A stretch of 64,000 bases of DNA from Bordetella parapertussis (GTDB lineage Bacteria > Acidobacteriota > Terriglobia > Bryobacterales > Bryobacteraceae), in assembly GCA_943328975.2 (NCBI GenBank), contig CALQCC020000006.1, positions 62,001 to 126,000 of the forward strand. The letters are read 5' to 3'. Shown here piece by piece: positions 2,619-54,424 of the stretch (its first letter is position 1; every line of letters begins with the position of its first letter). The notes below the pieces were generated by a model, which worked only from the letters and a program-made list of their open reading frames with translations, had not been told where the DNA came from and did no database searches. The position numbers and the translations under genes are program-made.

Positions 2619-3997
2619 TTGGTTAGATCGGCCAGGCGCGCGCGGGCGGTCACGAGTGCCGCGGCCACGGATTGCGGTCCGGTGCCACCGCGAATCTCGC
2701 GGGTCTTCATGCCTTCCGATGGCGTGAGGAGAGCCGCCATGGCGGGCGTGAATTCGGGGGCGAACTTGGTCAGCGTTTCGGCGGACCAATCGGACGGCTT
2801 CTTGCCGGAGCGCACGCTATCGAGAACTAAGCGTCCGACAATTTGATGGGCGGAGTGGAACGGTGTTCCGTTGCGAGCTAGCGCTTCGGCTAGATCGGTG
2901 GCGACTACCCAGCTCTCTTCTGCTGCCGCTGCAGGCTTCGCTGCATTTAATTTGGCGGACTCGACGACAACGCGCGCCATCTCTAGCGAGCCGCACAATT
3001 GGTCGGCGGCAGTGAAGATGGGTTCTTTGTCTTCCTGCATGTCGCGATTGTAGGTGGTCGGCAGGCCCTTCATGGTCATGAAGAGCGCGGTCAATTCTCC
3101 GAACACACGACCGGACTTGCCGCGGATTAATTCAAGTGAATCGGGGTTCTTCTTTTGCGGCATCAGGCTGGAACCGCTGGTGACGCCGTCGCCGAGTTCG
3201 AGCCATCCGAACTCCTCGCTGGAGTAGAGAATCCAATCTTCGGCGAGGCGGCTGAGGTGCAGCATCGTGGTGGATGCGGCGTAGAGGAAGTCGAGCGCGA
3301 AGTCGCGGTCGGCCGAAACGTCCATGCTGTTGTTGGTTACGGACGCGAATCCGAGTTCTTTGGCGATGGCTTCGCGATCGAACGGGAAGCCGCTGCCGGC
3401 GAGTGCACCGGAGCCGAGAGGCATCACGTTCACACGCGCACGGGCTTGCTGGAGGCGTTCAAAATCTCGGGCGAACATTTCAAAATACGCCAGCAGGTAA
3501 TGCGGCCACAGGACCGCTTGTGCGCGGCGCATGTGGGTGTAGCCGGGGATCACGGCGTCGGGATACTTTGCGGCGTTGTCGAGCAGTGCGTTCATCAAGC
3601 CAGCGAGAAACGCCGAGGAGCGGTCGATTTCTTCGCGCAGCCACAGGCGGATATCGAGCGAAACTTGTTCGTTGCGGCTGCGGCCGGTGTGAATTTTGTC
3701 GGCGATGGCACCGGCACGTTCTTTGGTTTTACGGATGACGACGGTGTGGACATCTTCGTCCGTGACGCCGTCCAGGAACTTGGGATCGCGAGCGTCCACG
3801 CGGATGCTCTCGAGGGTTGAAACCAGCGTCTCGCGCTCGGCGGCCGTCAGGATACCGACGCGCTCCAGGGCTCGCGCAAATGCTTGCGAGCCCCGGATGT
3901 CACAGTCGATCAAACGCCCGTCGAAGTGCACGCTGCGGCCGAACCGTTCGAAAACTTCGGACGGTCCTTCCTCAAAACGGCCTCCCCAGAGCTTCAT
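2615..3997 (-). CDS. argH: Argininosuccinate lyase
   Basis: A 460-residue argininosuccinate lyase, which splits argininosuccinate into arginine and fumarate. It starts MKLWGGRFEEGPSEVFERF, has TGRSRNEQVSLD, and carries the fumarase/aspartase superfamily signature GSSLMPQKKNPD. The ATG at 3997 overlaps the argG stop by 4 bp. Upstream in-frame codons to 4270 lie within argG and give an unrelated basic peptide, so they were excluded. Length and motifs are normal for the family. Confidence 0.97.
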   Translation of the reverse strand: MKLWGGRFEEGPSEVFERFGRSVHFDGRLIDCDIRGSQAFARALERVGILTAAERETLVSTLESIRVDARDPKFLDGVTDEDVHTVVIRKTKERAGAIADKIHTGRSRNEQVSLDIRLWLREEIDRSSAFLAGLMNALLDNAAKYPDAVIPGYTHMRRAQAVLWPHYLLAYFEMFARDFERLQQARARVNVMPLGSGALAGSGFPFDREAIAKELGFASVTNNSMDVSADRDFALDFLYAASTTMLHLSRLAEDWILYSSEEFGWLELGDGVTSGSSLMPQKKNPDSLELIRGKSGRVFGELTALFMTMKGLPTTYNRDMQEDKEPIFTAADQLCGSLEMARVVVESAKLNAAKPAAAAEESWVVATDLAEALARNGTPFHSAHQIVGRLVLDSVRSGKKPSDWSAETLTKFAPEFTPAMAALLTPSEGMKTREIRGGTGPQSVAAALVTARARLADLTK

Positions 3998-5226
3998 TTC
4001 TTTTTGGCTTTCTTGGCCGCCGCTTTTTGGACTGCGGCGCGAACCTGGATCGGGAGGCCGATCAAGTTGATGAAGCCGCGCGCGTCCTTCTGATCGTATT
4101 CGGCGCCCATGGTGAAGCTGGCGATGGCGTTGGAGTAGAGCGAATAGGGCGACTTGCGAGACACGGGCTCGATGGAACCCTTGTACAAGCGCAGGGTGAT
4201 TTCGCCGGTGGTGTTTTCGCAGGCCTTGGTGAAGAAGTCGTCGAGGGCTTCGCGCAACGGGGTGAACCACAGGCCGTTGTAGACCAGTTCGGCGTAATCG
4301 AGCGCGAGCTTCTGCTTGTAGTGCGCCATGCTCTTGTCGAGCGTTAGGGCTTCGAGCTCCTTGAAGGCGTACATGATGAGCGCGCCGCCCGGAGTTTCGT
4401 AGCAGCCGCGGGACTTCATACCGACGAAGCGATTTTCCACGAGATCGATGCGTCCGACACCGTGCTTGCTGCCGATCTTGTTGAGCTTTTCGAGCAATGC
4501 GACGGCGGAGGTGTAGCGCTTGCCGTCGACCGAAACGGGAGTGCCCTTTTCGAAGCCGATGGTGACGTCTTCGGATTTGTTGGGGGCATCCTTCGGGGAT
4601 GTGGTGAGCATCCAGATTTCATCCGGAGCTGCGTTGGCCGGATCTTCCAGCGCGCCGCCTTCGTGCGAGATGTGCCAAATGTTGCGGTCTCGGCTGTAGA
4701 TCTTTTTGGTGGATTGCGCGATGGGTACGTTGTGTTCCGCAGCGTACTTGATGGCGTCTTCGCGGGAGATGATGTCCCATTCGCGCCACGGAGCGATCAC
4801 GGGGAGATGCGGAGCGAGCGCCTTGTAGGTGAGCTCAAAACGCACCTGGTCGTTACCCTTGCCGGTGCAGCCGTGCGACAAGGCATCGCAACCGGATTCG
4901 AGCGCGACTTCGACCTGACGCTTGGCGAGCAGGGGACGCGCGATGGAGGTTCCGAGCAAATACTTGTGCTCGTATTCCCCGCCCGCGCGGACCATCTTCC
5001 ACAGGTATTCGGAGACGAACTCCTCACGCATGTCGGCGACGTAGCATTCGGATGCGCCGGTGGCTTTCGCTTTCTTCTTGAGGCCGGTGAGTTCCTCGCC
5101 GCCCTGGCCGATGTCGCCGCACACGGCGACGACTTCGCAGCCATAGTTCTCTTTCAACCACGGAATGATGATGGAGGTGTCCAAGCCTCCCGAGTAGGCG
5201 AGCGCGACCTTCTTAGGTTTGTTCAT
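3994..5226 (-). CDS. argG: Argininosuccinate synthase
   Basis: A 410-residue ATP-dependent ligase that joins citrulline and aspartate. The N-type ATP pyrophosphatase loop is clear at the start (ALAYSGGLDTSII), followed by HGCTGKGNDQVRFE. The C-terminus is lysine-rich (KKAAAKKAKKK), an unremarkable tail. It starts 7 bp after the argF stop and overlaps argH by 4 bp, so argF, argG and argH should be made from one message. Confidence 0.97.
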   Translation of the reverse strand: MNKPKKVALAYSGGLDTSIIIPWLKENYGCEVVAVCGDIGQGGEELTGLKKKAKATGASECYVADMREEFVSEYLWKMVRAGGEYEHKYLLGTSIARPLLAKRQVEVALESGCDALSHGCTGKGNDQVRFELTYKALAPHLPVIAPWREWDIISREDAIKYAAEHNVPIAQSTKKIYSRDRNIWHISHEGGALEDPANAAPDEIWMLTTSPKDAPNKSEDVTIGFEKGTPVSVDGKRYTSAVALLEKLNKIGSKHGVGRIDLVENRFVGMKSRGCYETPGGALIMYAFKELEALTLDKSMAHYKQKLALDYAELVYNGLWFTPLREALDDFFTKACENTTGEITLRLYKGSIEPVSRKSPYSLYSNAIASFTMGAEYDQKDARGFINLIGLPIQVRAAVQKAAAKKAKKK

Positions 5227-6254: not shown

Positions 6255-6611
6255 ATGAACGACACGCGTAAGATTGAAAATGTCCACGTAGCGCTGTGGC
6301 TGATGAAAGACATGTCTTGGGTTTCCGACTGGAAGCTCCTCGGCCTGATCATGGTTGTGCCGACGCTTGCGGTCTCCGTGAAGATCTGCTGGGACACGAG
6401 GCACCGTATGGCGGATATGGTCCACAACATCGCGGTCAGTTTGTGGATTTGCGCGAATACGGTATGGATGATTGGCGAGTTCTACTACCAGGACATGACG
6501 CGTCCCTTCGCTCGGGGCTTCTTCTTTGCAGGGATGGCCTTACTCATCGGCTACTACCTTTGGGCGTGGACACGTCGAGAGGATGCACCGGGAGGTCAGG
6601 CCTATTTTTAG
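6255..6611 (+). CDS. Small membrane protein of unknown function
   Basis: A 118-residue protein with three hydrophobic stretches (about residues 30-47, 60-78 and 90-108) and a charged end (WTRREDAPGG). The ATG at 6255 is chosen because GGGAAGG lies 4-10 nt upstream; a TTG 12 bp earlier is possible but has no such site. I do not recognise a family. It is divergent from argF and leads a row of four same-strand genes with an ECF sigma factor and two DUF2892-type proteins, so a role in the same envelope response is possible but unproven. Confidence 0.75.
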   Translation: MNDTRKIENVHVALWLMKDMSWVSDWKLLGLIMVVPTLAVSVKICWDTRHRMADMVHNIAVSLWICANTVWMIGEFYYQDMTRPFARGFFFAGMALLIGYYLWAWTRREDAPGGQAYF

Positions 6612-6690
6612 AATTTCAAGATTCCCGCGAACCGAAACGCTCCTTCGCACCCTCTTGTCTAGTGAGAACGCTTTTCAAGGAGACACAATC

Positions 6691-6903
6691 ATGTTTTACG
6701 TAAAGAATTTGCCCGGGTGGGAACGTGCGCTGCGTGTGGGTGCCGGAGGGATGATGGTGGCGGGTGGATTGTACTGGATGCCGGGATCGCCGATGGGTTA
6801 TGTTGCCATCGCAATGGGCATGATAGCCGGCGTGACGGGGTTGATCGGGTTCTGCCCGATGGACGCCATGGTGGGCCGTAAGCTGGACAAGAGTAAGGGG
6901 TAG
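6691..6903 (+). CDS. DUF2892 (YgaP-like transmembrane) protein
   Basis: A 70-residue protein beginning MFYVKNLPGWERALRVGAG, with two hydrophobic segments and the motif GLIGFCPMDAMVG. The N-P-G-WERA(L/I)R start and G-(x)-CP ending are the hallmarks of DUF2892, the small membrane module also found at the end of the YgaP rhodanese. AAGGAG at 6678-6683 supports the ATG at 6691. It ends 5 bp before the ECF sigma factor gene, so the two are probably co-transcribed. Confidence 0.85.
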   Translation: MFYVKNLPGWERALRVGAGGMMVAGGLYWMPGSPMGYVAIAMGMIAGVTGLIGFCPMDAMVGRKLDKSKG

Positions 6904-6908
6904 AAACG

Positions 6909-7439
6909 GTGACTCGGAGTTGGCGGCATGATGCGACGTTGATTGAGGCGGCACAGGCCGGTGACGAACAGGCGCTGGTGTCGCTGCTGGAAGCGGCGCA
7001 ACCGGATATCCGCAAGTATGCTCGCGTGAGTTGCCACCACGCGGACGATGTAGACGATGCGGTGCAGGAGACACTGTGGCTGCTCTACCGGCGAGTGGGA
7101 AGTCTGCGCGCACTCACATCTCTATCCGGCTGGTTGTACACGGTGGTGCGGCGCGAGTGCCAACGGATGGCGCGCTTGGCTTTCGGTGGCGGGACGCATG
7201 AGATCGAGGCGATGGAAGACGACTTGCGCCTTTCCACGCGGCCGCCAGTGGAACTGCGGGTGGATCTGGCACAGGCGATTCGTTCGCTGCCGGAACATTA
7301 CCGCGAGGTCGTTCTCTTGCGCGACATCGAAGAGATGTCGATTCAAGAGATCTCTTCGGCGTTGATATTGACGCGGGAGAGCACGAAGGCTCGGTTGCAT
7401 CGTGCGCGGGCGCTGATCCGGGAATACTTGAAAGACTAA
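6909..7439 (+). CDS. ECF-type RNA polymerase sigma factor
   Basis: A 176-residue group IV sigma factor starting at GTG 6909. Region 2 (about residues 12-85) contains DVDDAVQETLWLLYRRV and SGWLYTVVRREC; region 4 (about 125-170) contains LPEHYREVVLLRDIEEMS and a helix-turn-helix ending TKARLHRARALIREYL. No classical anti-sigma gene (zinc anti-sigma or DUF-type with a large periplasmic domain) follows. Instead it sits between two tiny DUF2892-type membrane proteins with a conserved CPM motif, which are the only candidates here for a sensor or anti-sigma. Confidence 0.92.
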   Translation: MTRSWRHDATLIEAAQAGDEQALVSLLEAAQPDIRKYARVSCHHADDVDDAVQETLWLLYRRVGSLRALTSLSGWLYTVVRRECQRMARLAFGGGTHEIEAMEDDLRLSTRPPVELRVDLAQAIRSLPEHYREVVLLRDIEEMSIQEISSALILTRESTKARLHRARALIREYLKD

Positions 7440-7722: not shown

Positions 7723-8847
7723 ATGTTTGGCTCACTGAGAATCGCGCATGGGCTTCTTCTGGCCGCATTTGTCTCGGATCCGCTTCTCGCTCAAGACGAC
7801 ATTTCTAAGCTGCTGGAGAAAGAGCTACAGGTGAACCGTCTGGCGGGGATGGCGGTGGTGGTTCGGGCGGACGGCGCGGCGGTGATCGGATCTGCTGGAG
7901 TGAAGCGGGATGGGGAGAGTGCCGCTATCGAGAGGGGGAATCTATTCCATCTGGGATCGAATACCAAGGCATTCACGGCGACGATGATTGCTCGCTTGGT
8001 GGAAACTGGAAAGCTGTCGTGGGCGACAACGCCGCTGGATGTTTTTCCGGAGTTGCGGGCGACGCTGCATCCGGCGCTGAAGGATGTGACGCTGGAGCAA
8101 CTGCTATCGCATCATGCGGGGATCGCACCGTACAGCGACTCGAGTGAGAAGGAATACAAGGCGCTGCCTCCGATCAGTGGCAGCGCGGTGGAACAACGAA
8201 TCAAGTTTTCGGCGTGGGTGCTGCAGCATAAACCCGCGCTGGCTCCGGGAAAGAAGGGGTCCTACTCCAACGCGGGTTTCGTGATCGCGGCGGCGATGGC
8301 GGAGCGAGTCACGGGATCGTCTTGGGAGGAGTTGGTTACGGCGCACGTGCTGGAGCCGCTGGGAATCCATGCGGTGTATGCGTGGCCGGCGACGGGGGAT
8401 CGCGGCCAACCGTGGGGCCACTCGGAAACGAAGAAGGGCCTCAAGGCGCAGGATCCAGCGGATGAATTGGAGCAGCTACCGCCGTTCCTTCTGCCCGCGG
8501 GCGGCATGGCGATGTCGATGGGCGATTACGGCAAGTTTCTACAGGAACACTTGCGAGGCTTGGAGGGCAAGAAGAGTTCGTTTCTTTCGGTCGAGACGAT
8601 TCGCAAGTTGCACTCCTCCTCGATGATGGACAAGTACGCGTTGGGCTGGGGGATTGCGCCAGTGGATGGCGTCCCCTCGAGTTCGCATACTGGCAGCGCG
8701 GGGAGTTTCTACGCGGTCGTGGTCCTGCAACCGGGCCGCGATGTGGCGGTCGCCGTGGTTACGAATTCGGATGGCGTGAGAAGCGAGACCAGCGCGAAGA
8801 AAGTATTGAAGGCGTTGCTGGCGCAACACCTTAGTCCGGCGCGCTGA
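7723..8847 (+). CDS. Secreted serine hydrolase, beta-lactamase/D-aminopeptidase superfamily
   Basis: A 374-residue protein with a signal peptide (cut probably after PLLAQ). It has the three motifs of the class C beta-lactamase fold: SxxK as LGSNTKAFTA near residue 85, YxN as YSNAGF near 180, and HTG as SSHTGSAG near 313. Such enzymes act in the periplasm as esterases, peptidases or low-activity beta-lactamases; substrate cannot be told. GGTTAAGG just upstream of ATG 7723 may be its ribosome site. It stands alone, 28 bp after the sigma operon. Confidence 0.88.
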   Translation: MFGSLRIAHGLLLAAFVSDPLLAQDDISKLLEKELQVNRLAGMAVVVRADGAAVIGSAGVKRDGESAAIERGNLFHLGSNTKAFTATMIARLVETGKLSWATTPLDVFPELRATLHPALKDVTLEQLLSHHAGIAPYSDSSEKEYKALPPISGSAVEQRIKFSAWVLQHKPALAPGKKGSYSNAGFVIAAAMAERVTGSSWEELVTAHVLEPLGIHAVYAWPATGDRGQPWGHSETKKGLKAQDPADELEQLPPFLLPAGGMAMSMGDYGKFLQEHLRGLEGKKSSFLSVETIRKLHSSSMMDKYALGWGIAPVDGVPSSSHTGSAGSFYAVVVLQPGRDVAVAVVTNSDGVRSETSAKKVLKALLAQHLSPAR

Positions 8848-8911
8848 CTACACTGGCGTACGGGGTAGGCATTCCGATTCAGGACTAGGAAATCTGTCAC
8901 AATAGCTGCCT

Positions 8912-11449
8912 ATGCGTTGCGCGGCTTGTCAGGCTGAGATTGTCAGGCCGGGACGGGTTTGTCCCGAGTGTGCGGTGCCGCTTGATCCCGATCCGGACGC
9001 TACAGAGACTGTAGCGATGAAGGTGAAGCCGCCGTCTTCTTCTGGTTCGTCCGCCAAGGATGGGCGGTTTGCTCCAGGAGTATTGCTGGCGGAGCGCTAC
9101 CGTATCATTTCGATGATCGGGCGAGGGGGCATGGGCGAGGTTTACCGGGCCTCCGATTTGAAGCTGAACCAACCTGTGGCGCTGAAGTTTTTGCCTGCCG
9201 CTGTTGCGAAGAAACCTGGGCTGCTGGAGCGGTTTCATGGCGAGGTTCCCATCGCTCGGCAAGTCTCGCATCCGAACGTGTGCCGCGTTTACGACATTGG
9301 AGAGGCTGAGGGCACCGCGTTCATTTCGATGGAGTATGTGGACGGCGAGGACCTCGGCAGCCTGCTGCGGCGCATCGGGCACCTGCCTACTGCCAAAGCT
9401 ACGGAGATCGCGCGCAAGTTGTGCGCGGGTTTGGCTGCGGCGCATGCGAAGGGCGTGCTGCATCGCGACCTGAAGCCTGGCAACATCATGATCGATGGGC
9501 GCGGGCAGGTCCTCATCATGGACTTCGGGCTCGCGTCGCGGGCGCGGAGGTGCGCAACGGGACTCCAGCGTACATGGCTCCCGAGCAGCTTTCGGGGAAA
9601 GAAGTTTCGGAACGCAGCGACATCTACGCGCTCGGGCTGGTGCTGCACGAAATCTCCATGGGGGAGCGCGCGTTCAAGGGTAAAGACCGCTCCACCCTCC
9701 CGAGCGCGGTGAGCATCGTCCGCGACATCGACCCCATCGTCGACCGCGTCATCGCCCGCTGCCTCGATCCCGATCCGGCCAAGCGTCCGCAATCGGCCCT
9801 GGGCCTCGCCCGGATGCTGCCCGGTGGCGATCCGCTGGCCGAGGCCCTTGCGGCGGGCGATACACCCTCCCCCGAACTCGTCGCCAACTCCGGCTCCACC
9901 GAAGTCCTGCGCGTCCCCGTCGCCATCGCATGTTTGGCCGCCGTGATCCTGGGCATTGGAGGCGTCGCCTAGATGCAGCAGCGCAACAACTTCGTCAACA
10001 AGGTGCCCATGGAGTTCGCGCCGGACTTTCTCGCGGTCAAGGCTCGCGACATCGCCGCTGGTTTGGGCTACACCGAACGACCCGTGGATCGCGCCTTCGG
10101 CTGGTTCACGGATGCGGGATACCGCACCTACGCGAGCGCGCAGCCCGACGCCGCGCGCTGCTTGACACAACAGGGAACCAATCGGCCTCCCCCGCTCATC
10201 TTCTGGTACCGCGAAGCTCCCCGCTACCTGGTGGGAGAGGAGGGTGGAGCCGTCGAGAGAAATACCCCCCCCGCGGCGGAGCCGGGAAATCTCGAAATGC
10301 AGCTCGATTCCGAGGGTCGCCTGCTGCAGTTCCGCACTTGGCCGTCCGAGACGGCAGCGGCAGAGAAGCCCGCCACAGACTTCTCCAAACTGCTGACCGC
10401 CGCGGGATTCGATCCCTCGAAACTGACCGCAGCCGATCCCTCGTGGACACCGCCGATGGCGTTCGATACCCGAGCCGCGTGGACAAGCAAAGAGGGCTCC
10501 GACCCCATCCGCATCGAAGTAGCCTCGTGGCGGGGGCAGGTGGTGGCGTTGCAGCGCCAGCTTCCCTGGAACGTGGCCGCGCCCCCGGTGAATCGTCTCT
10601 TCAACTTCTATTTTTTGCTCCTGTTGCCGCTGGTGGCCGCCCTTGTGGCTTGGCGCAACCTCCGGCTGGGGCGTGGGCACAAACGCGGCGCGAATCGCTT
10701 GGCCGGGTTCCTCCTCGTGTGCCAGATCACTTCTCAACTCCTCGCGTCCCACCACATTCCGCAGAACGAGGAAGGCTTGGTCATCGTTACGGCGCTGCGG
10801 GACGCCCTGTACCTCCCCGTAGCCCTCTGGTTGATCTACGTTGCCTTTGAACCTTTCCTGCGCCGTTACGTGCCCCACACTTGGTTGGCTGGAGCCGCTT
10901 GCTAGAGGGCCGCTGGAAGGACCCGCTGGTGGGCGGCAATTTACTGGCGGGCTGGGCATGAGCCTTATAGAGATGGTGGCCCCCAACCCCAACGTGAATG
11001 TATTCCTACTTGCGGATGCCAGCGGTTCCATCGCATTTCTCGCCGCCATGGCGAGCAAAGGGATCAGCGCCACATTGCTCCTTACGTTGCTGTGGCTCTT
11101 GTTTCGCATTCCCACCCGGCGCGATTGGCTGGCGTCCGTTCTGATGGTCGGCGTGTCAATTGCCGTGGCCGGGCCACGCGGCATTGGAATATTGACGTTT
11201 GGGACCTTAATAGGGATTGTGGCTCTGCTCCTCACGCGCTTCGGGGTCCTGGCATTGGCAGCGGCTTTCGTTACCGCCTACCTCGCCGTCTTCGGGGTCG
11301 CGCCTTGGACCACGTCTATCTCGGTGTGATACGCCAAGACGATGTTCCTCGCCATTGCCTTGATTCTGGCCATCGCGATCTACGGCTTCCGCACCACGCT
11401 CGCGGGGCGGGCCTTGTGGCAAGATGGATTGGAAAAGGACGGTGCCTAA
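8912..11449 (+). pseudogene. Broken membrane Ser/Thr protein kinase gene
   Basis: Pieces of one large kinase in three frames. The intact start has a zinc ribbon (MRCAACQ...CPECAVPL), then the kinase lobes with [27 protein letters not shown] and DFGLAS. At about 9536-9541 the frame shifts and continues [17 protein letters not shown] to about 9969, apparently missing part of the activation loop. An in-frame TAG at 9970-9972 interrupts the first membrane segment; the same frame continues with MQQRNNFVNKVPMEFAPD to about 10875. A single-base shift near 10880 gives GWSRLLEGRWKDPLVGG, then another shift near 10945-10965 leads to a multi-TM tail. An in-frame TGA at 11327-11329 stands where Trp would fit, followed by YAKTMFLAIALILAIAIYGF to TAA 11449. 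Five lesions make this non-functional as one kinase. Confidence 0.88.
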
Positions 11450-49195: not shown

Positions 49196-50317
49196 CTAGA
49201 TCAGCTCTAACAACACGAATCCAGCGACTTGCGAAGCTTTCCCACCCTGGAAGACAATACGGCGCGTCTTGGGGAACGGCAGGCCCGTGCGCAAGGCGTT
49301 ATCGTAGAACGCCACACGCTTGGCCAGTGAGCGATAGGAGGCATCGGTGGTGTCTCCCGCAGCAATCTTCGAGAGAACGCCGCCACCCCACCCAATGGAG
49401 AGCACGCAAGCGTCTTGCCGTGAGGATACGGCGCGGATCTTGGCTTCGAGTTCATCCACCGTTGCAGCCAACGGAGCCAACCCTGTCCACTGCGCGTACT
49501 GTTTGTGATGCGCCAGTTGCGACGACGCAAAACGGTTCGCGGCCTGGAAAATCTTCGCACGGTCGCGATCAGAGGATTCGTTCCACACGCCTTCAAAGGC
49601 CGTGCCCGGCGACGCCATCTCGGCGAACGTCGGAGTGCTGTCATCAATGCGACGGGCGTCTACCGTGCCACGGGCAGCTTTCCAACCCAACTCGTACTGG
49701 CCCTCGCCCTTGGCCACCAACGTCGAGGTCCGCAGCAAGTAAACGTTCATGCTGCTGTGATTGATGCTCGCTGAATCACCCGCCGATACGCGGCGCATGA
49801 TGCTCTTCCCCGAACCACCCAGTACCGCTTCTTCCGCCTTGGTAGCGGGATTACGCGGGATTCGTTTGCCTTCGGCCTCTTCAGACTCGATGCGCTTCAC
49901 CAGATCGCGCATGGTCGCTTCGCTCCAGCGATCGAACACCGCGGCGGTACGAAGCGCGCCCTTGATCGCCGTGGCAGGCAGGTAAGCTCCACCCGCAGTG
50001 GAGGCTGCAAAAGTCGGAATAAAAAGACCTTGCGCCGGCGTCTTCTCAAACACCGGGACCTCGCTGGAGTGTTCGAACGGAATGCGTCGACCAGCGAAGT
50101 TCTGCGCAAATCCACCCCACGAGGCAAAGTCTAACTTATCGGCCTTCTTGAGCTGCGCGAGGTATCCCTCAAAGCGCGGCCCCTTGGCCAGCAAGCGGAA
50201 AATGCGCCGCTGATCCAGAACATTGACGTGGTCTTTCCACACCATGTAATCGATGGGCGAAAGCTTGCTGCCATCGCCGACCAGAGTCGGGGTCAAACAT
50301 GTGACGCGATACTTCAT
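49196..50317 (-). CDS. csm5: Type III-A CRISPR protein Csm5
   Basis: A 373-residue RAMP protein. It begins MKYRVTCLTPTLVGDGSKLS, followed by PIDYMVW, the Csm5 opening (LTPxxxGxGxxLxPxDY). Further on are FIPTFAASTAGGAYLPATAI with KGALRTA, the RAMP substrate-loop region, and a C-terminal Gly-rich stretch (IGWGGGVLSK). Csm5 caps the 3' end of the crRNA filament. ATG 50317 overlaps the csm4 stop by 4 bp. In-frame codons to 50680 lie inside csm4. Confidence 0.9.
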   Translation of the reverse strand: MKYRVTCLTPTLVGDGSKLSPIDYMVWKDHVNVLDQRRIFRLLAKGPRFEGYLAQLKKADKLDFASWGGFAQNFAGRRIPFEHSSEVPVFEKTPAQGLFIPTFAASTAGGAYLPATAIKGALRTAAVFDRWSEATMRDLVKRIESEEAEGKRIPRNPATKAEEAVLGGSGKSIMRRVSAGDSASINHSSMNVYLLRTSTLVAKGEGQYELGWKAARGTVDARRIDDSTPTFAEMASPGTAFEGVWNESSDRDRAKIFQAANRFASSQLAHHKQYAQWTGLAPLAATVDELEAKIRAVSSRQDACVLSIGWGGGVLSKIAAGDTTDASYRSLAKRVAFYDNALRTGLPFPKTRRIVFQGGKASQVAGFVLLELI

Positions 50318-51321
50318 GCAGTCACCTTCAAAGGAATCGAAATCGCCAGTGCGAAGCCCGCGCGATACACCGGATGCGCGAAGCCGTCCGGGGCAACATC
50401 GGCAACCGCGCCGCGCGGAGCAGCCGAGGCCACGATGACTGAGCCTTCCGTCACCATGCGCGTCAGTTTCTTGCCATCGCCCCACCCAGCTTGGCTTTCC
50501 ACGCGTCCACCGCGGGTCGTCAATTCGTAGTCGCCCTGTTGCCAATCGACCGCGTCGGTAGTCGCAGGATGGAACAACGAAAGCAGCCAGTAACCGGATT
50601 CCGTTTCTGACTTCGGCTGTTTGAGCAACAACCCAGGCAATTCGCCCGCAGTGATCTCCGGCATTTCCGAACGGCCCCAACCACGCGAACGTTCCCCGCC
50701 CATACCGGAATCAGCCAGCAAACGAAACGCAGCAGTCAGCGGACCAGTCCAGCGATCGCGCGCAGCATCGTCGGCAAACTCAGCGACGGTCCACAATCCG
50801 CAATCGGGAGTAAATTCCAAACACGCAGTGGAATGCGGCGTAACGCTGCTGCCGTCCCGATCCACAGCGGCACTGGAGCGGACGGCCACGCGAAACGGTC
50901 CAGGTACGGACGGGTTGCGCGCGGGCACCAGACATTCGCTTTCGCCGTCAATCGCCCACGATCCTTCAGATAGCGTACGACCCGCGAGCAGCGTCTCTAC
51001 AACGCTCATAGGGACGAAACGTGCGCCCTTCCAACGAATCTTCGCAGACGCTTGGGGCGGCCACAAATTGCGCGGCGGCTCGACTAACAACGTATCGCCC
51101 TGAAACGGGAAGCACGACCCGAAACGCACCGCAGGTTCCGCTGCGCGCGCCGTTGCCTCTAACCACTCGTCGAGCATACCCAGTTGCGCCATCGCGCTCG
51201 ACACCGCGGAATACAGCGAGTCGCTGTGAAACACGCGGTCGACGCGATCCCGCACCCCGGAATCCGGACCAATGCGCCAAGGGCCTGTCGGCCGCAGGCG
51301 GATGAGAAGACCTTGCGGCAT
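50314..51321 (-). CDS. csm4: Type III-A CRISPR protein Csm4
   Basis: A 335-residue RAMP protein that holds the crRNA 5' tag and contacts Cas10. It starts MPQGLLIRLRPTGPWRIGPD and has FHSDSLYSAVSSAMAQLG (the Csm4 HSDTLFSAL-type motif), RFVPMSVVETLLAG and the Gly-rich loop DSGMGGERSRGWGRSEM. Normal length for the family. It starts 1 bp after csm3. Confidence 0.9.
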   Translation of the reverse strand: MPQGLLIRLRPTGPWRIGPDSGVRDRVDRVFHSDSLYSAVSSAMAQLGMLDEWLEATARAAEPAVRFGSCFPFQGDTLLVEPPRNLWPPQASAKIRWKGARFVPMSVVETLLAGRTLSEGSWAIDGESECLVPARNPSVPGPFRVAVRSSAAVDRDGSSVTPHSTACLEFTPDCGLWTVAEFADDAARDRWTGPLTAAFRLLADSGMGGERSRGWGRSEMPEITAGELPGLLLKQPKSETESGYWLLSLFHPATTDAVDWQQGDYELTTRGGRVESQAGWGDGKKLTRMVTEGSVIVASAAPRGAVADVAPDGFAHPVYRAGFALAISIPLKVTA

Positions 51322-51322
51322 C

Positions 51323-52156
51323 CTAGCTCAGTTTTTCGCCAAACGAAGAATCATTTACCAGCGACTGCACCGCAGCCAGGTCCGCACCCGACGCGAGTTC
51401 GGCTTCCGCCGCGCCCGTCGAATAGAAGGACTCCCCGCGCCATGTCATCGTGACGTTCGCGAAGCGAACACGTCCGCTACCACGCGAACCGCCGCCGCCC
51501 AACGCATCGTCTTCCAGCAGCCGCAGGCCACCGATCAAACGCGCCGCCAGCGCCTTATCTTCTTCGCATAGAATGTCGAGCACCATGCGCACACGGAAGC
51601 GCGCACCGGCCGGAACACGTTCCAACGTCCGAGGATTCGCCTGCGATGTGATGCGGTCGATCGCGTTCTCGCTCTTGACCTCAGTGATTTCGTCGTCCAG
51701 GTTCTCGCGCATCTGCGCCGTGATGGACTCCTGATCGAGCGGCGCATCGTAGATGGCCAAACGCGCAGGGCTCGCCGAGCGAGCTTCGATGGCTTCGCCT
51801 TCCACCCGTTCCATGCGACCCGGATTGCGGCCGAACAGCAGGCAGATTTCGTCATCCGGACGATCGCTCTGGTGGATGCGCACTTCTTGTCCACGGCGCT
51901 TCGACAGATAGACCAACTCCGAAGGAGCCGTCAGCCCCATCGCGGTTTCCAGCAAGGACCGCAAGCGTCCGCGCAACGAACTGCCCGGGACATACGGCAA
52001 CCCGAACGCATCCTTTACAACCGGATTGTCCGCGCCGCCGATCTCGAGCGATCCCTTGCCCGCGCCAATGTGCAGGCCGGTCTCGCAGTGCAGATCACCG
52101 GCCAGAATCAGCTTGCCGATCAGCTTCAATTTAGTTTGAGCAGTATGTTGGCTCAT
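51323..52156 (-). CDS. csm3: Type III-A CRISPR protein Csm3 (target RNA nuclease subunit)
   Basis: A 277-residue Cas7-like backbone protein. The loop with the catalytic Asp is intact: GAGKGSLEIGGADNPVVKD, followed by LPYVPGSSLRGRLRSLLE. The C-terminal Gly-rich loop is DDALGGGGSRGSGRVRF. In known complexes repeated Csm3 subunits cut bound target RNA every 6 nt using this Asp. The preserved Asp argues that the module still cuts RNA. It starts 9 bp after csm2. Confidence 0.93.
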   Translation of the reverse strand: MSQHTAQTKLKLIGKLILAGDLHCETGLHIGAGKGSLEIGGADNPVVKDAFGLPYVPGSSLRGRLRSLLETAMGLTAPSELVYLSKRRGQEVRIHQSDRPDDEICLLFGRNPGRMERVEGEAIEARSASPARLAIYDAPLDQESITAQMRENLDDEITEVKSENAIDRITSQANPRTLERVPAGARFRVRMVLDILCEEDKALAARLIGGLRLLEDDALGGGGSRGSGRVRFANVTMTWRGESFYSTGAAEAELASGADLAAVQSLVNDSSFGEKLS

Positions 52157-52165
52157 ATAGTCTCG

Positions 52166-52954
52166 CTATTCGTTGTAGGCGACGATCGCCTCAAACAGGT
52201 CCTTAAATCTTTCGTATCCCTGCGCGTTGTTCTTGCGCGTCACCTGCAGCAACAGCCGCTCCAAGCCATCCAGGCTGCGCAGCGAATGCCGCGCGATAGT
52301 GTAAGCCAAGCGCGCGCGCAACATCACAAACTGATGCTGGCGATCACTTTCCGGAGCCCGCACCGCACGGCGCACGGCGTTAAACAAACGGCGCAGTTGG
52401 CTCTTAGTGCCGCTATCCATGTCGCGCATGCGAACCACAACGGCATGGGCTTGATTATCCAGATAGAGGCTATCGGTCATCAATTTCTCGATGTCGATAT
52501 CCATCATCGGCTCGAACGAACGGGCTCCGCGATCACCACCACCCGGACGTCCACCGCCTTCGCGACGGTCTCCACCCGGACGAGGACCACGATCTCCGCC
52601 ACCCGGACGACCGCCCTCAGGACGGCCACCACCACGCTCCGGACGAGGACCTCGATTTTCGCCACGCGGACCATCCGCACGCGCACCCTCGGCACGCGGT
52701 TCGCGCTTCGGCTGCGGCTCACGTTTCGGTTGCTGTTCACGAGCCGGCTGCTGTTCGCGCGGTTCACGCGGCGGACGGCTGCCTTCACGCTTCGCCAGCT
52801 GCGCGGCCAACGTTCCTTCGACAGGACCGGACGGCGCGGCGCTCTTCGCCACTAAAGGTTCCGCGACAACAGCTGGTTCCGGTGCGGCGACAGGCTCAGC
52901 CGCCGGAGCCGGGGTTTCGATAATGGGAGTAGGGTTCTCTTGATTCTCTTCCAT
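52166..52954 (-). CDS. csm2: Type III-A CRISPR protein Csm2 with long Arg/Gly/Pro-rich N-terminal extension
   Basis: A 262-residue protein, about twice normal Csm2 length. Residues about 150-262 are the helical Csm2 core: LMTDSLYLDNQAHAVVVRMR, KSQLRRLFNAVRRAVRAPES and a C-terminal YERFKDLFEAIVAYNE. Residues 1-55 are Ala/Pro/Glu/Val-rich. Residues 56-147 are a low-complexity basic stretch with PREPREQQPAREQQPKREP, then repeats of RPGGGDRG and RPERGGG, like RGG domains that bind RNA. The start at ATG 52954 is firm: AAGGAG lies 5 nt upstream. The extension is in frame and lies between two cas genes, so it is not a start-site error. Confidence 0.88.
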   Translation of the reverse strand: MEENQENPTPIIETPAPAAEPVAAPEPAVVAEPLVAKSAAPSGPVEGTLAAQLAKREGSRPPREPREQQPAREQQPKREPQPKREPRAEGARADGPRGENRGPRPERGGGRPEGGRPGGGDRGPRPGGDRREGGGRPGGGDRGARSFEPMMDIDIEKLMTDSLYLDNQAHAVVVRMRDMDSGTKSQLRRLFNAVRRAVRAPESDRQHQFVMLRARLAYTIARHSLRSLDGLERLLLQVTRKNNAQGYERFKDLFEAIVAYNE

Positions 52955-52972
52955 ACAACTCCTTAAGCGCAC

Positions 52973-54424
52973 TTACGCTTGAGCGGCAGACAGCCTCGCC
53001 CATTCTAGCGCCACGCGGCCCGCAGGCCGTAACTTTACTGTGATCGCGCTACGACCGATCAAATCCGCAATCAATGCCGTGCGCGCCTTCTCAAATTCCT
53101 GCCGCCCCCGGCTCCCCATGCGGGTAGCATGCCGCGAAGCGTTCAAGATCCGTCGGATACGGCGATGATACCGCCACGGCCGCTCGCCACCCATCTTCCG
53201 AGCCTGCTTCTTGGACATCCGCGACTGCGTCTCGCGATAGATCCCGCACAAGTCCCGCAGATATTGAGGGGAGCAGCCAAACTCGCTCACCATCTTCGAC
53301 AAAGCGTCTTTCAGCGTCGCGGCCTCGGCGAACTGCTTCCATTCCAGCGTGCGGCCCAGGATCCAGATGCAATCCTTGTCCGACGATTTCGCCGCTTCCA
53401 AACGTTGCCCGGCTTCTTCAAACACCGCCCCCAGCGAAGCATCCACTGCGGGAGCCAGCGCCAGAGCCATGGTGATGGTCTTGCCTTCAGGACCAACGAA
53501 GTCTTTCAAATTCTGCTCGGCAAAACGATGGAACAGCCGTTCAATTTCGCCAGCCAATCCGATCAGCGCGTCCCAAGCTCCGTAGACTGCGAAGTCGTCG
53601 CCGCCGGAATACATCACTGTGACCTTGCGCCAGAACTCCGGCATGGAACACAGCACTTCTAGTTCACCGGCGAAGAACTGTTTGTACATCACCGAAAGTT
53701 GAATATGTTCTTCGATCGACTGCGCGCGCTGCATGCGGATGGCGAAGTTATCCACGTCGCCGCGCAACACACCCCACGTTTCGACGCCGCCTGCACGAGA
53801 GGCCAACACCGCCGTCGACGCGGGCTCCGTGCCATCTTCGCTCGGCGCAGTGTGGCGAGCAAACGGAATCGCTTCGGCTGCCGCAGTTAACGGCCACGAA
53901 TGTTTTCCAGCAGTCGTCGTCACGCGACCCGGCGTTTCAGGGGACCACGAAACAGACTCCGCATCGCGCAGCGGAAATCCAAGTTCGGTAATGAAGTACT
54001 CTTCCGCGGAAGCATCCGCTGCTGTCACGGTCTCGTCGAACCCCGGAGCTCCGCGACGCTGATCCAGCGCCACCTGCAAGCGCCGACGCACATCCGTCCA
54101 GTCGCCTAAATTCTCCGTGAGACTCCAAATCAACTTCAGCGCGTTCCCGCTCAGCTGTCCGATTTCGGCAGCAGCGGCGGTCAGGAAAGCCTCCGCGGAC
54201 TCGCGCGTTTCAATCGGCAGCAGCAGCAGGAACCGGCCGCCACCACTCGATCCCAGCAGAATCTTCGCCAGCCCCAACTCCGCCAGCAACGCGCGCGGCA
54301 GCACTTCGCTCAGCAGGCTGATCCAATGCGAACGCCCCGTAAACACCTGGTCGGCGTCACGCGTGGCGGGGGCGAGCAGACAGTTGTCCACTCCTAGGAG
54401 TTTGCCTTCGAGAAAGATCTGCAT
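52973..54424 (-). CDS. cas10: Type III-A CRISPR protein Cas10/Csm1 lacking the HD domain
   Basis: A 483-residue Cas10, against roughly 750-850 in typical Csm1. It begins directly in the first palm region (KILLGSSGGGRFLLLLPIET near residue 52). The second palm has RGDVDNFAIRM at 221-231 and the cyclase motif VMYSGGDDFAVYG, GGDD at 274-277, intact. There is no N-terminal HD motif and no four-Cys zinc site; the C-terminal helical domain is basic (RRIRRILNASRHATRMGSRG). It should be able to make cyclic oligoadenylate but not cut ssDNA. It begins 15 bp after the cobA-hemD stop with no Shine-Dalgarno sequence and no room for a promoter in the gap. Confidence 0.92.
   Translation of the reverse strand: MQIFLEGKLLGVDNCLLAPATRDADQVFTGRSHWISLLSEVLPRALLAELGLAKILLGSSGGGRFLLLLPIETRESAEAFLTAAAAEIGQLSGNALKLIWSLTENLGDWTDVRRRLQVALDQRRGAPGFDETVTAADASAEEYFITELGFPLRDAESVSWSPETPGRVTTTAGKHSWPLTAAAEAIPFARHTAPSEDGTEPASTAVLASRAGGVETWGVLRGDVDNFAIRMQRAQSIEEHIQLSVMYKQFFAGELEVLCSMPEFWRKVTVMYSGGDDFAVYGAWDALIGLAGEIERLFHRFAEQNLKDFVGPEGKTITMALALAPAVDASLGAVFEEAGQRLEAAKSSDKDCIWILGRTLEWKQFAEAATLKDALSKMVSEFGCSPQYLRDLCGIYRETQSRMSKKQARKMGGERPWRYHRRIRRILNASRHATRMGSRGRQEFEKARTALIADLIGRSAITVKLRPAGRVALEWARLSAAQA

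What the first reader, a model, noticed from the sequence alone, without database searches (positions are those of the whole stretch)
49196..54424. Orphan type III-A module with HD-less Cas10 and intact cyclase
cas10-csm2-csm3-csm4-csm5 are complete and in order. Cas10 is only 483 aa: the HD nuclease and the usual zinc site are absent, yet GGDD (274-277) is intact. Csm3 keeps its catalytic Asp (GGADNPVVKD). The window has no array, cas6, cas1/cas2, or Csm6/Can/CARF effector. Seen: motifs and gene content. Known: Cas10 palm domains make cyclic oligoadenylate; HD cuts ssDNA. Inference: the module guides RNA cleavage and perhaps signals, using crRNAs and an effector encoded elsewhere, or serves a non-immune RNA role.
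Basis: partly seen in the sequence, partly recalled or inferred. Interest (0 to 1): 0.8.

Follow-up and report, generated by a model that had tools for sequence, protein, structure and literature searches.

The report
Family-wide CRISPR complex without CRISPR arrays
A stripped-down type III-A CRISPR complex, normally part of an immune system that varies from strain to strain, is present as an almost universal, strongly conserved gene set throughout one family of soil bacteria, although most of these genomes lack the spacer-acquisition gene and show no detectable guide arrays, which suggests that it was turned into a housekeeping RNA machine.

Summary
In detail: cas10-csm2-csm3-csm4-csm5 are complete at 49196-54424 (-), and Cas10 (483 aa) starts exactly where the first palm domain of known Csm1 starts, so the HD domain is absent while the GGDD cyclase is present. 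An orthologous HD-less Cas10 occurs in 83 of 91 sampled genomes of the family (Bryobacteraceae, Acidobacteriota; 63 genera) and in 0 of 60 other genomes of the order and class. The whole operon is syntenic in all 20 relatives first inspected. Csm2 core, Csm3 and Cas10 are mostly under stronger purifying selection than neighbouring haem enzymes. Every Csm2 examined carries a Gly/Arg/Pro-rich, probably disordered N-tail. A stand-alone Cas6 elsewhere in the genome is equally family-wide (59/61). Cas1 is patchy (27/61) and absent here; arrays of the usual handle type are absent here and from 76/101 family genomes. Of 20 family genomes with neither Cas1 nor a detectable array, 17 keep both csm and Cas6. 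Best reading: a vertically inherited, domesticated type III-A RNP with a function independent of CRISPR memory. Guide RNA and messenger receptor were not found; RNA slicing and cyclase activity are inferred from conserved residues.

The parts
52973..54424 (-). cas10/csm1, HD-less, 483 aa: palm1 (~1-125), short linker without Zn cysteines (~125-210), palm2 with RGDVDN and GGDD (~215-355), helical D4 (~362-480)
   Evidence: PF22335 1e-17, TIGR02578 2e-47; AlphaFold model pLDDT 83 aligns over residues 1-482 to Csm1 240-757 at Z 31-33; GGDD-type motif readable in 43 of 44 orthologues, strict GGDD in 39
52166..52972 (-). csm2/cas11 with an Arg/Gly/Pro/Glu-rich N-terminal tail (~145 aa) followed by a nearly invariant Csm2 core
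   Evidence: PF03750 1e-9 on residues 173-266; tail of 40-165 aa in all 48 orthologues measured, G 16%, R 16%, P 16%, E 12.5%; core dN/dS 0.02-0.06
51323..52156 (-). csm3/cas7, backbone subunit with catalytic Asp43
   Evidence: TIGR02582 200 bits against a cut-off of 90; D43 aligns with GG-D-NPV of solved Csm3 chains; conserved in >=97% of 43 orthologues
50314..51321 (-). csm4/cas5
   Evidence: TIGR01903 133 bits against 55
49196..50305 (-). csm5/cas7-like, ATG start at 50305
   Evidence: TIGR01899 41.8 bits against 38.3; orthologues in 72 of 91 loci, many of which are cut by contig ends
48222..49109 (-). XrtA/PEP-CTERM-type (ExeA/GspA-like) AAA ATPase, directly downstream in about half of the relatives; probably a neighbour rather than a component
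   Evidence: TIGR03015 292 bits, below its cut-off of 324.5; directly downstream of csm5 in 28 of 61 loci with enough sequence

Best explanation
This is a domesticated type III-A (Csm) ribonucleoprotein fixed in the family Bryobacteraceae. Shown: a five-gene csm operon and a separate Cas6 inherited together with the lineage. HD nuclease, Zn linker and Cas1 are gone from this genome and no array was detected; the cyclase motif, the RNA-slicing aspartate, the Csm2-Csm5 scaffold and Cas6 are retained, and every Csm2 seen carries an R/G/P-rich tail. Inferred mechanism: Cas6 trims a host RNA that is not a classical CRISPR array transcript. Csm4/Csm3/Csm2/Csm5 assemble on it. A matching host transcript is bound and cut by Csm3 at 6-nt steps. 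Target binding switches on the Cas10 palm cyclase, which makes a nucleotide messenger read by a receptor that is not yet identified. The R/G/P-rich tails add non-specific RNA binding or clustering. The result is a regulatory or RNA-quality function rather than adaptive immunity.
For: Near-universal and single-copy: 83/91 family genomes, all same-genus copies at 68-89% identity and all other genera at 66% or less, none in 60 other genomes of order and class and none in a sample across the phylum, where hits outside the family are ordinary Cas10 fragments under 92 bits against 702-770 bits in the family. Whole operon syntenic in 20/20 relatives and in most of 91 non-redundant loci. dN/dS of csm2 core 0.02-0.06, csm3 0.04-0.08 and cas10 0.07-0.11, against 0.09-0.22 for hemA/C/D. 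Cas6 in 59/61 family genomes, with distances correlated with Cas10 (Mantel r 0.64, p 2e-4). Cas1 only 27/61. TTGARAC-type arrays in 25/101 family genomes and not in this one. 17 of the 20 genomes without Cas1 and without array keep both csm and Cas6. Active residues conserved. Gly/Arg/Pro-rich Csm2 tail in every orthologue examined.
Against: No guide RNA and no messenger receptor were found. The array tests cover only repeats ending in GARAC/TTGARAC, and arrays can fall out of draft assemblies. Two CARF families were tested, no SAVED. At least one relative (G076, L049) has lost both GGDD aspartates, so the cyclase is not indispensable everywhere; four of 91 family genomes at >=92% completeness lack Cas10 altogether. 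Strong selection and vertical descent show that it matters, not what it does. The haem genes are the only housekeeping yardstick used for selection. Cas6 and the csm operon are unlinked, so their partnership is inferred.
Confidence: 0.55

Rival explanations
1. In-trans immune module: the chromosomal Csm complex and Cas6 use crRNAs from arrays of whatever mobile CRISPR system the strain happens to carry, as many array-less type III loci are thought to do.
For: 25 of 101 family genomes have arrays with typical handles; the 2025 classification states that most III-B, III-C, III-E and III-F loci lack arrays (PMC12669027); the slicing Asp and Cas6 are retained.
Against: Most carriers, this genome included, show no array and no Cas1, yet the module is kept under strong purifying selection there. 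No array was found within about 10 kb of csm in 91 relative loci; the repeat hits inspected were tandem or coding repeats.
Confidence: 0.2
2. Ordinary slow-evolving III-A immunity whose arrays were missed because the repeats do not end in GARAC or because arrays drop out of draft metagenome assemblies.
For: The relatives are nearly all metagenome-assembled genomes and this one is in 69 contigs; a Cas6 with crRNA-maturation profile matches is conserved; only two repeat-end patterns were tested genome-wide.
Against: Genomes of 99-100% completeness in few contigs (G011: 30 contigs) also lack arrays and Cas1; window and cas6 surroundings show no repeats of CRISPR type; without Cas1 arrays could not be renewed.
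Confidence: 0.15
3. Guide-free complex: the RAMP proteins and the R/G/P-rich Csm2 coat or cluster RNA non-specifically, and Cas10 acts as a constitutive or allosteric nucleotidyl cyclase.
For: No guide source found; the R/G/P-rich tail is present in all Csm2; Csm2 core and Csm3 are the most conserved subunits.
Against: Residues needed for guide-directed slicing (Csm3 Asp43 and its surrounding motif) and a Cas6 are conserved family-wide, which a guide-free coat would not need.
Confidence: 0.1

Closest known systems
Type III-A (Csm) effector complexes (S. thermophilus, L. lactis, S. epidermidis, E. italicus, T. onnurineus)
   Same: Same five subunits in the usual order; Cas10 fold from palm1 to D4 (Z up to 32.8 over residues 1-482); GGDD; Csm3 catalytic Asp.
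   Different: No HD domain, no Zn-ribbon cysteines, no detected array, no cas1; cas6 unlinked; R/G/P-rich Csm2 tail; fixed in one bacterial family instead of patchy.
HD-less, cyclase-positive type III loci (III-D, many III-B, about a third of III-A)
   Same: Cas10 relies on palm and cyclase only (PMC11229360).
   Different: Those loci normally sit with arrays and a CARF/SAVED effector in a defence locus; neither was found here.
Array-less type III loci (III-B, III-C, III-E, III-F) and exapted CRISPR systems
   Same: Lack of a local array; reductive evolution (PMC12669027).
   Different: Those are scattered and mobile; this one is vertically inherited across 63 sampled genera of one family. Searches of an open-access full-text library found no description of it.
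III-A2 variant of the 2025 classification
   Same: III-A-type Cas10 predicted to synthesise cOA.
   Different: III-A2 lacks an identifiable Cas11 (PMC12669027); here Cas11/Csm2 is present and has the best conserved core of the complex.

Membership tests
CRISPR-Cas subtype III-A effector module | Cas10/Csm1 with two palm domains and GGDD | tested here: met
   PF22335, TIGR02578 (162 of 170 bits), fold match to Csm1 at Z 31-33
CRISPR-Cas subtype III-A effector module | Csm2, Csm3, Csm4 and Csm5 in one operon | tested here: met
   conserved order in relatives
CRISPR-Cas subtype III-A effector module | HD nuclease domain in Cas10 (typical, not obligatory) | tested here: not met
   Residue 1 aligns to Csm1 residue 240-251 in the reference complexes checked
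CRISPR-Cas subtype III-A effector module | Catalytic Asp in Csm3 | tested here: met
   D43 in GGADNPV, >=97% of 43 orthologues
Complete type III CRISPR-Cas immune system | CRISPR array | tested here: inconclusive
   None in the window or near cas6; none for the TTGARAC pattern and chance level for the GARAC pattern genome-wide; other repeat ends not tested
Complete type III CRISPR-Cas immune system | Cas6 crRNA-processing nuclease | tested here: met
   Stand-alone gene on another contig, PF10040 3e-14, PADLOC Cas6 4e-49; 59/61 family genomes
Complete type III CRISPR-Cas immune system | Cas1 adaptation protein | tested here: not met
   No PF01867 hit in the genome; 27/61 family genomes
Complete type III CRISPR-Cas immune system | cOA-responsive effector (CARF/SAVED) | tested here: inconclusive
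   PF22230 0/41 and PF09670 1/41, that one in G004 on the same contig as an ordinary Cas10; SAVED and other CARF families not tested
III-A2 variant | No identifiable Cas11/Csm2 | tested here: not met
   Csm2 present
Complete type III CRISPR-Cas immune system | Guide RNA bound in the complex | not testable with these tools
   needs RNA sequencing of purified complexes

The most novel reading that the evidence does not exclude
A whole bacterial family uses a former type III-A CRISPR effector as a housekeeping RNA-guided machine, with guides processed by a stand-alone Cas6 from a non-CRISPR host RNA, a retained second-messenger cyclase, and an R/G/P-rich Csm2 that may drive RNP clustering.
Probability: 0.35. 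Interest if true: 0.93.

Novelty: new variant of a known kind. Interest (0 to 1): 0.8.

Why it matters
CRISPR effectors are normally mobile, patchy and tied to spacer memory. A complete multi-subunit Csm complex that is a near-core gene set of a family, kept under mostly stronger purifying selection than neighbouring haem enzymes and present where neither Cas1 nor an array can be detected, would be a rare case of a class 1 CRISPR complex taken over by a chromosome for a non-memory function. It makes open questions directly testable: what RNA a Csm complex binds when there is no array, what a Cas10 cyclase signals outside immunity, and what an R/G/P-rich tail does to a Cas11 subunit.

Tried and rejected
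Longer Cas10 start with HD: rejected (upstream stop, fold alignment starts at palm1). Haem-operon co-function: the hem genes lie upstream only in close relatives, so the linkage is lineage-specific; a recurrent upstream motif (CTGTGCTAAAGTGA-like) about 35-55 nt before cas10 suggests an own promoter. Downstream ATPase as effector: it is an XrtA/PEP-CTERM-type ATPase present next to csm in only 28/61 loci. CRISPR array near csm or cas6: repeats flagged in L041-L047, L056 and L173 include coding tandem repeats or a uniform 70-bp tandem repeat, not arrays; the one real array pair next to a Cas6 (L110, G029) lies beside large RAMP-like genes in a genome that lacks this Cas10. Solitary repeat-like handles in the genus: the 30 loci examined are mostly coding and, except one pair from sister genomes, unrelated. 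Own-genome array pattern hits were at control level. Pseudogene decay: rejected by dN/dS. Rfam: no hit in the window or at the cas6 locus.

Full report
Observation. The window carries cas10-csm2-csm3-csm4-csm5 on the - strand at 49196-54424, all confirmed by curated profiles. Cas10 is 483 aa; its open frame ends just upstream at 488 aa. A profile of its family aligns residues 7-11 to residues 255-273 of solved Csm1 chains, and the AlphaFold model (pLDDT 83) superposes over residues 1-482 on Csm1 residues about 240-757 with Z up to 32.8. So the protein is palm1, a short linker, palm2 and D4; domain A (HD) is absent and the linker has no cysteine pairs. GGDD and the Asp223/Asp225 pair are present. 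Csm3 keeps the catalytic Asp at position 43.

Genome context. The window is C6:62001-126000 of a 4.34 Mb, 69-contig genome, 99.7% complete. RAMP searches find only this csm3 and csm5. Cas1 is absent. A stand-alone Cas6 lies at C37:23957-24817, with no repeats in 20 kb around it and ordinary neighbours. A three-repeat pattern with TTGARAC ends finds nothing here, and the looser GARAC pattern is at control level. No Rfam hit was found in the window or at the cas6 locus.

Distribution. An orthologous Cas10 is in 83 of 91 family genomes, one copy each, with same-genus identity 68-89% and other genera 66% or less, and in none of 60 genomes of other families. The named relatives in GTDB are overwhelmingly labelled Bryobacterales, Bryobacteraceae, Solibacter, Sulfopaludibacter or Acidobacteria/Terriglobia (one record is labelled Acidimicrobiia). 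A phylum-wide sample of 297 genomes finds no orthologue outside the family; the hits there score under 92 bits, against 702-770 bits in the family, and several lie in frames of 800 aa or more. In 20 relatives the whole operon is present and syntenic; in 91 non-redundant loci cas10 to csm5 are the conserved block, and the next most frequent gene is an XrtA-type ATPase. Cas6 is in 59 of 61 family genomes tested. Cas1 is in 27 of 61, often in several unrelated copies. Arrays of the tested type are in 25 of 101 family genomes. Of 20 family genomes without Cas1 and without such an array, 17 keep both csm and Cas6.

Conservation. GGDD-type motifs are readable in 43 of 44 Cas10s: 39 strict GGDD, two GGDE, one AGDD, one GSDD; one relative (L049) has lost it, and another (L048) has an altered RGD motif before the first metal-site Asp. 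The Csm3 catalytic segment is conserved in at least 97% of 43 sequences. The Csm2 core is nearly identical across the family and is always preceded by a 40-165 aa tail rich in G, R, P and E. NG86 estimates against genus-mates give dN/dS of 0.02-0.06 for the Csm2 core, 0.04-0.08 for Csm3, 0.065-0.113 for Cas10 and 0.05-0.16 for Csm4 and Csm5, against 0.09-0.22 for hemA, hemC and hemD; many synonymous distances exceed 1, so these are rough. Cas10 and Cas6 distances are correlated (Mantel r 0.64, p 2e-4), Csm5 and Cas10 more strongly (0.93). This is the signature of vertical inheritance under constraint, not of a mobile defence locus or a decaying relic.

Mechanism. Shown: composition, inheritance, constraint, conserved catalytic residues, absence of HD and Cas1, and absence of arrays within the stated tests. 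Inferred from the known biochemistry of Csm complexes: Cas6 matures a guide, Csm3 slices at 6-nt intervals, target binding activates the Cas10 cyclase. Not found: the guide RNA and the messenger receptor (PF22230 0/41; PF09670 1/41). The PF22230 model may simply be insensitive here. Because the module persists where no array can be seen, its main function is best explained as independent of CRISPR memory.

Literature. HD loss is common (HD recognisable in 65% of III-A loci, PMC11229360), and array-less type III loci are known (PMC12669027). Searches of an open-access library found no paper describing this family-wide module; subscription papers are not covered, so absence of a description is not proven.

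Limits. The relatives are mostly metagenome-assembled genomes. Only repeats ending in GARAC/TTGARAC were searched genome-wide. Function is inferred, not measured.

Noticed in passing
L056:3818-4258 (-), L046:4035-4367 (-), L047 about 3700-4270 (-), L045:3745-3936 (-): Downstream of the csm-ATPase block several relatives encode a small secreted protein with proline-rich tandem repeats (e.g. VGDPPRPYDLTIK, PPNPWDEGPPKLTIGPTL) behind a long leader; resembles a repeat-type precursor peptide, function unknown.
   Followed up: partly
L110 (G029:C13:65000-84999), 6456-6961 and 8704-9370: Two CRISPR arrays with the same 37-nt repeat and about 90% identical duplicated leaders, between large RAMP-like ORFs and a Cas6 related to the family Cas6; this genome lacks the HD-less Cas10.
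   Followed up: partly
L049 (G076:C128:5098-6453): Cas10 orthologue in which both GGDD aspartates and the first palm2 metal-site Asp are lost (SGIEG), with the rest of the operon kept: a natural cyclase-dead member.
   Followed up: no
window:54440-58861: The csm operon starts 15 bp after a cobA-hemD fusion in a hemX-hemA-hemC-hemD cluster; seen only in close relatives, so probably a lineage-specific insertion behind the haem genes.
   Followed up: yes
L173:9580-9929: Uniform 70-bp tandem repeat (five units) directly upstream of cas10 in one relative; not a CRISPR array.
   Followed up: partly
G025, G029, G085, G090: Family genomes of at least 92% completeness without the HD-less Cas10; useful natural losses for correlating phenotype or gene content.
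   Followed up: no
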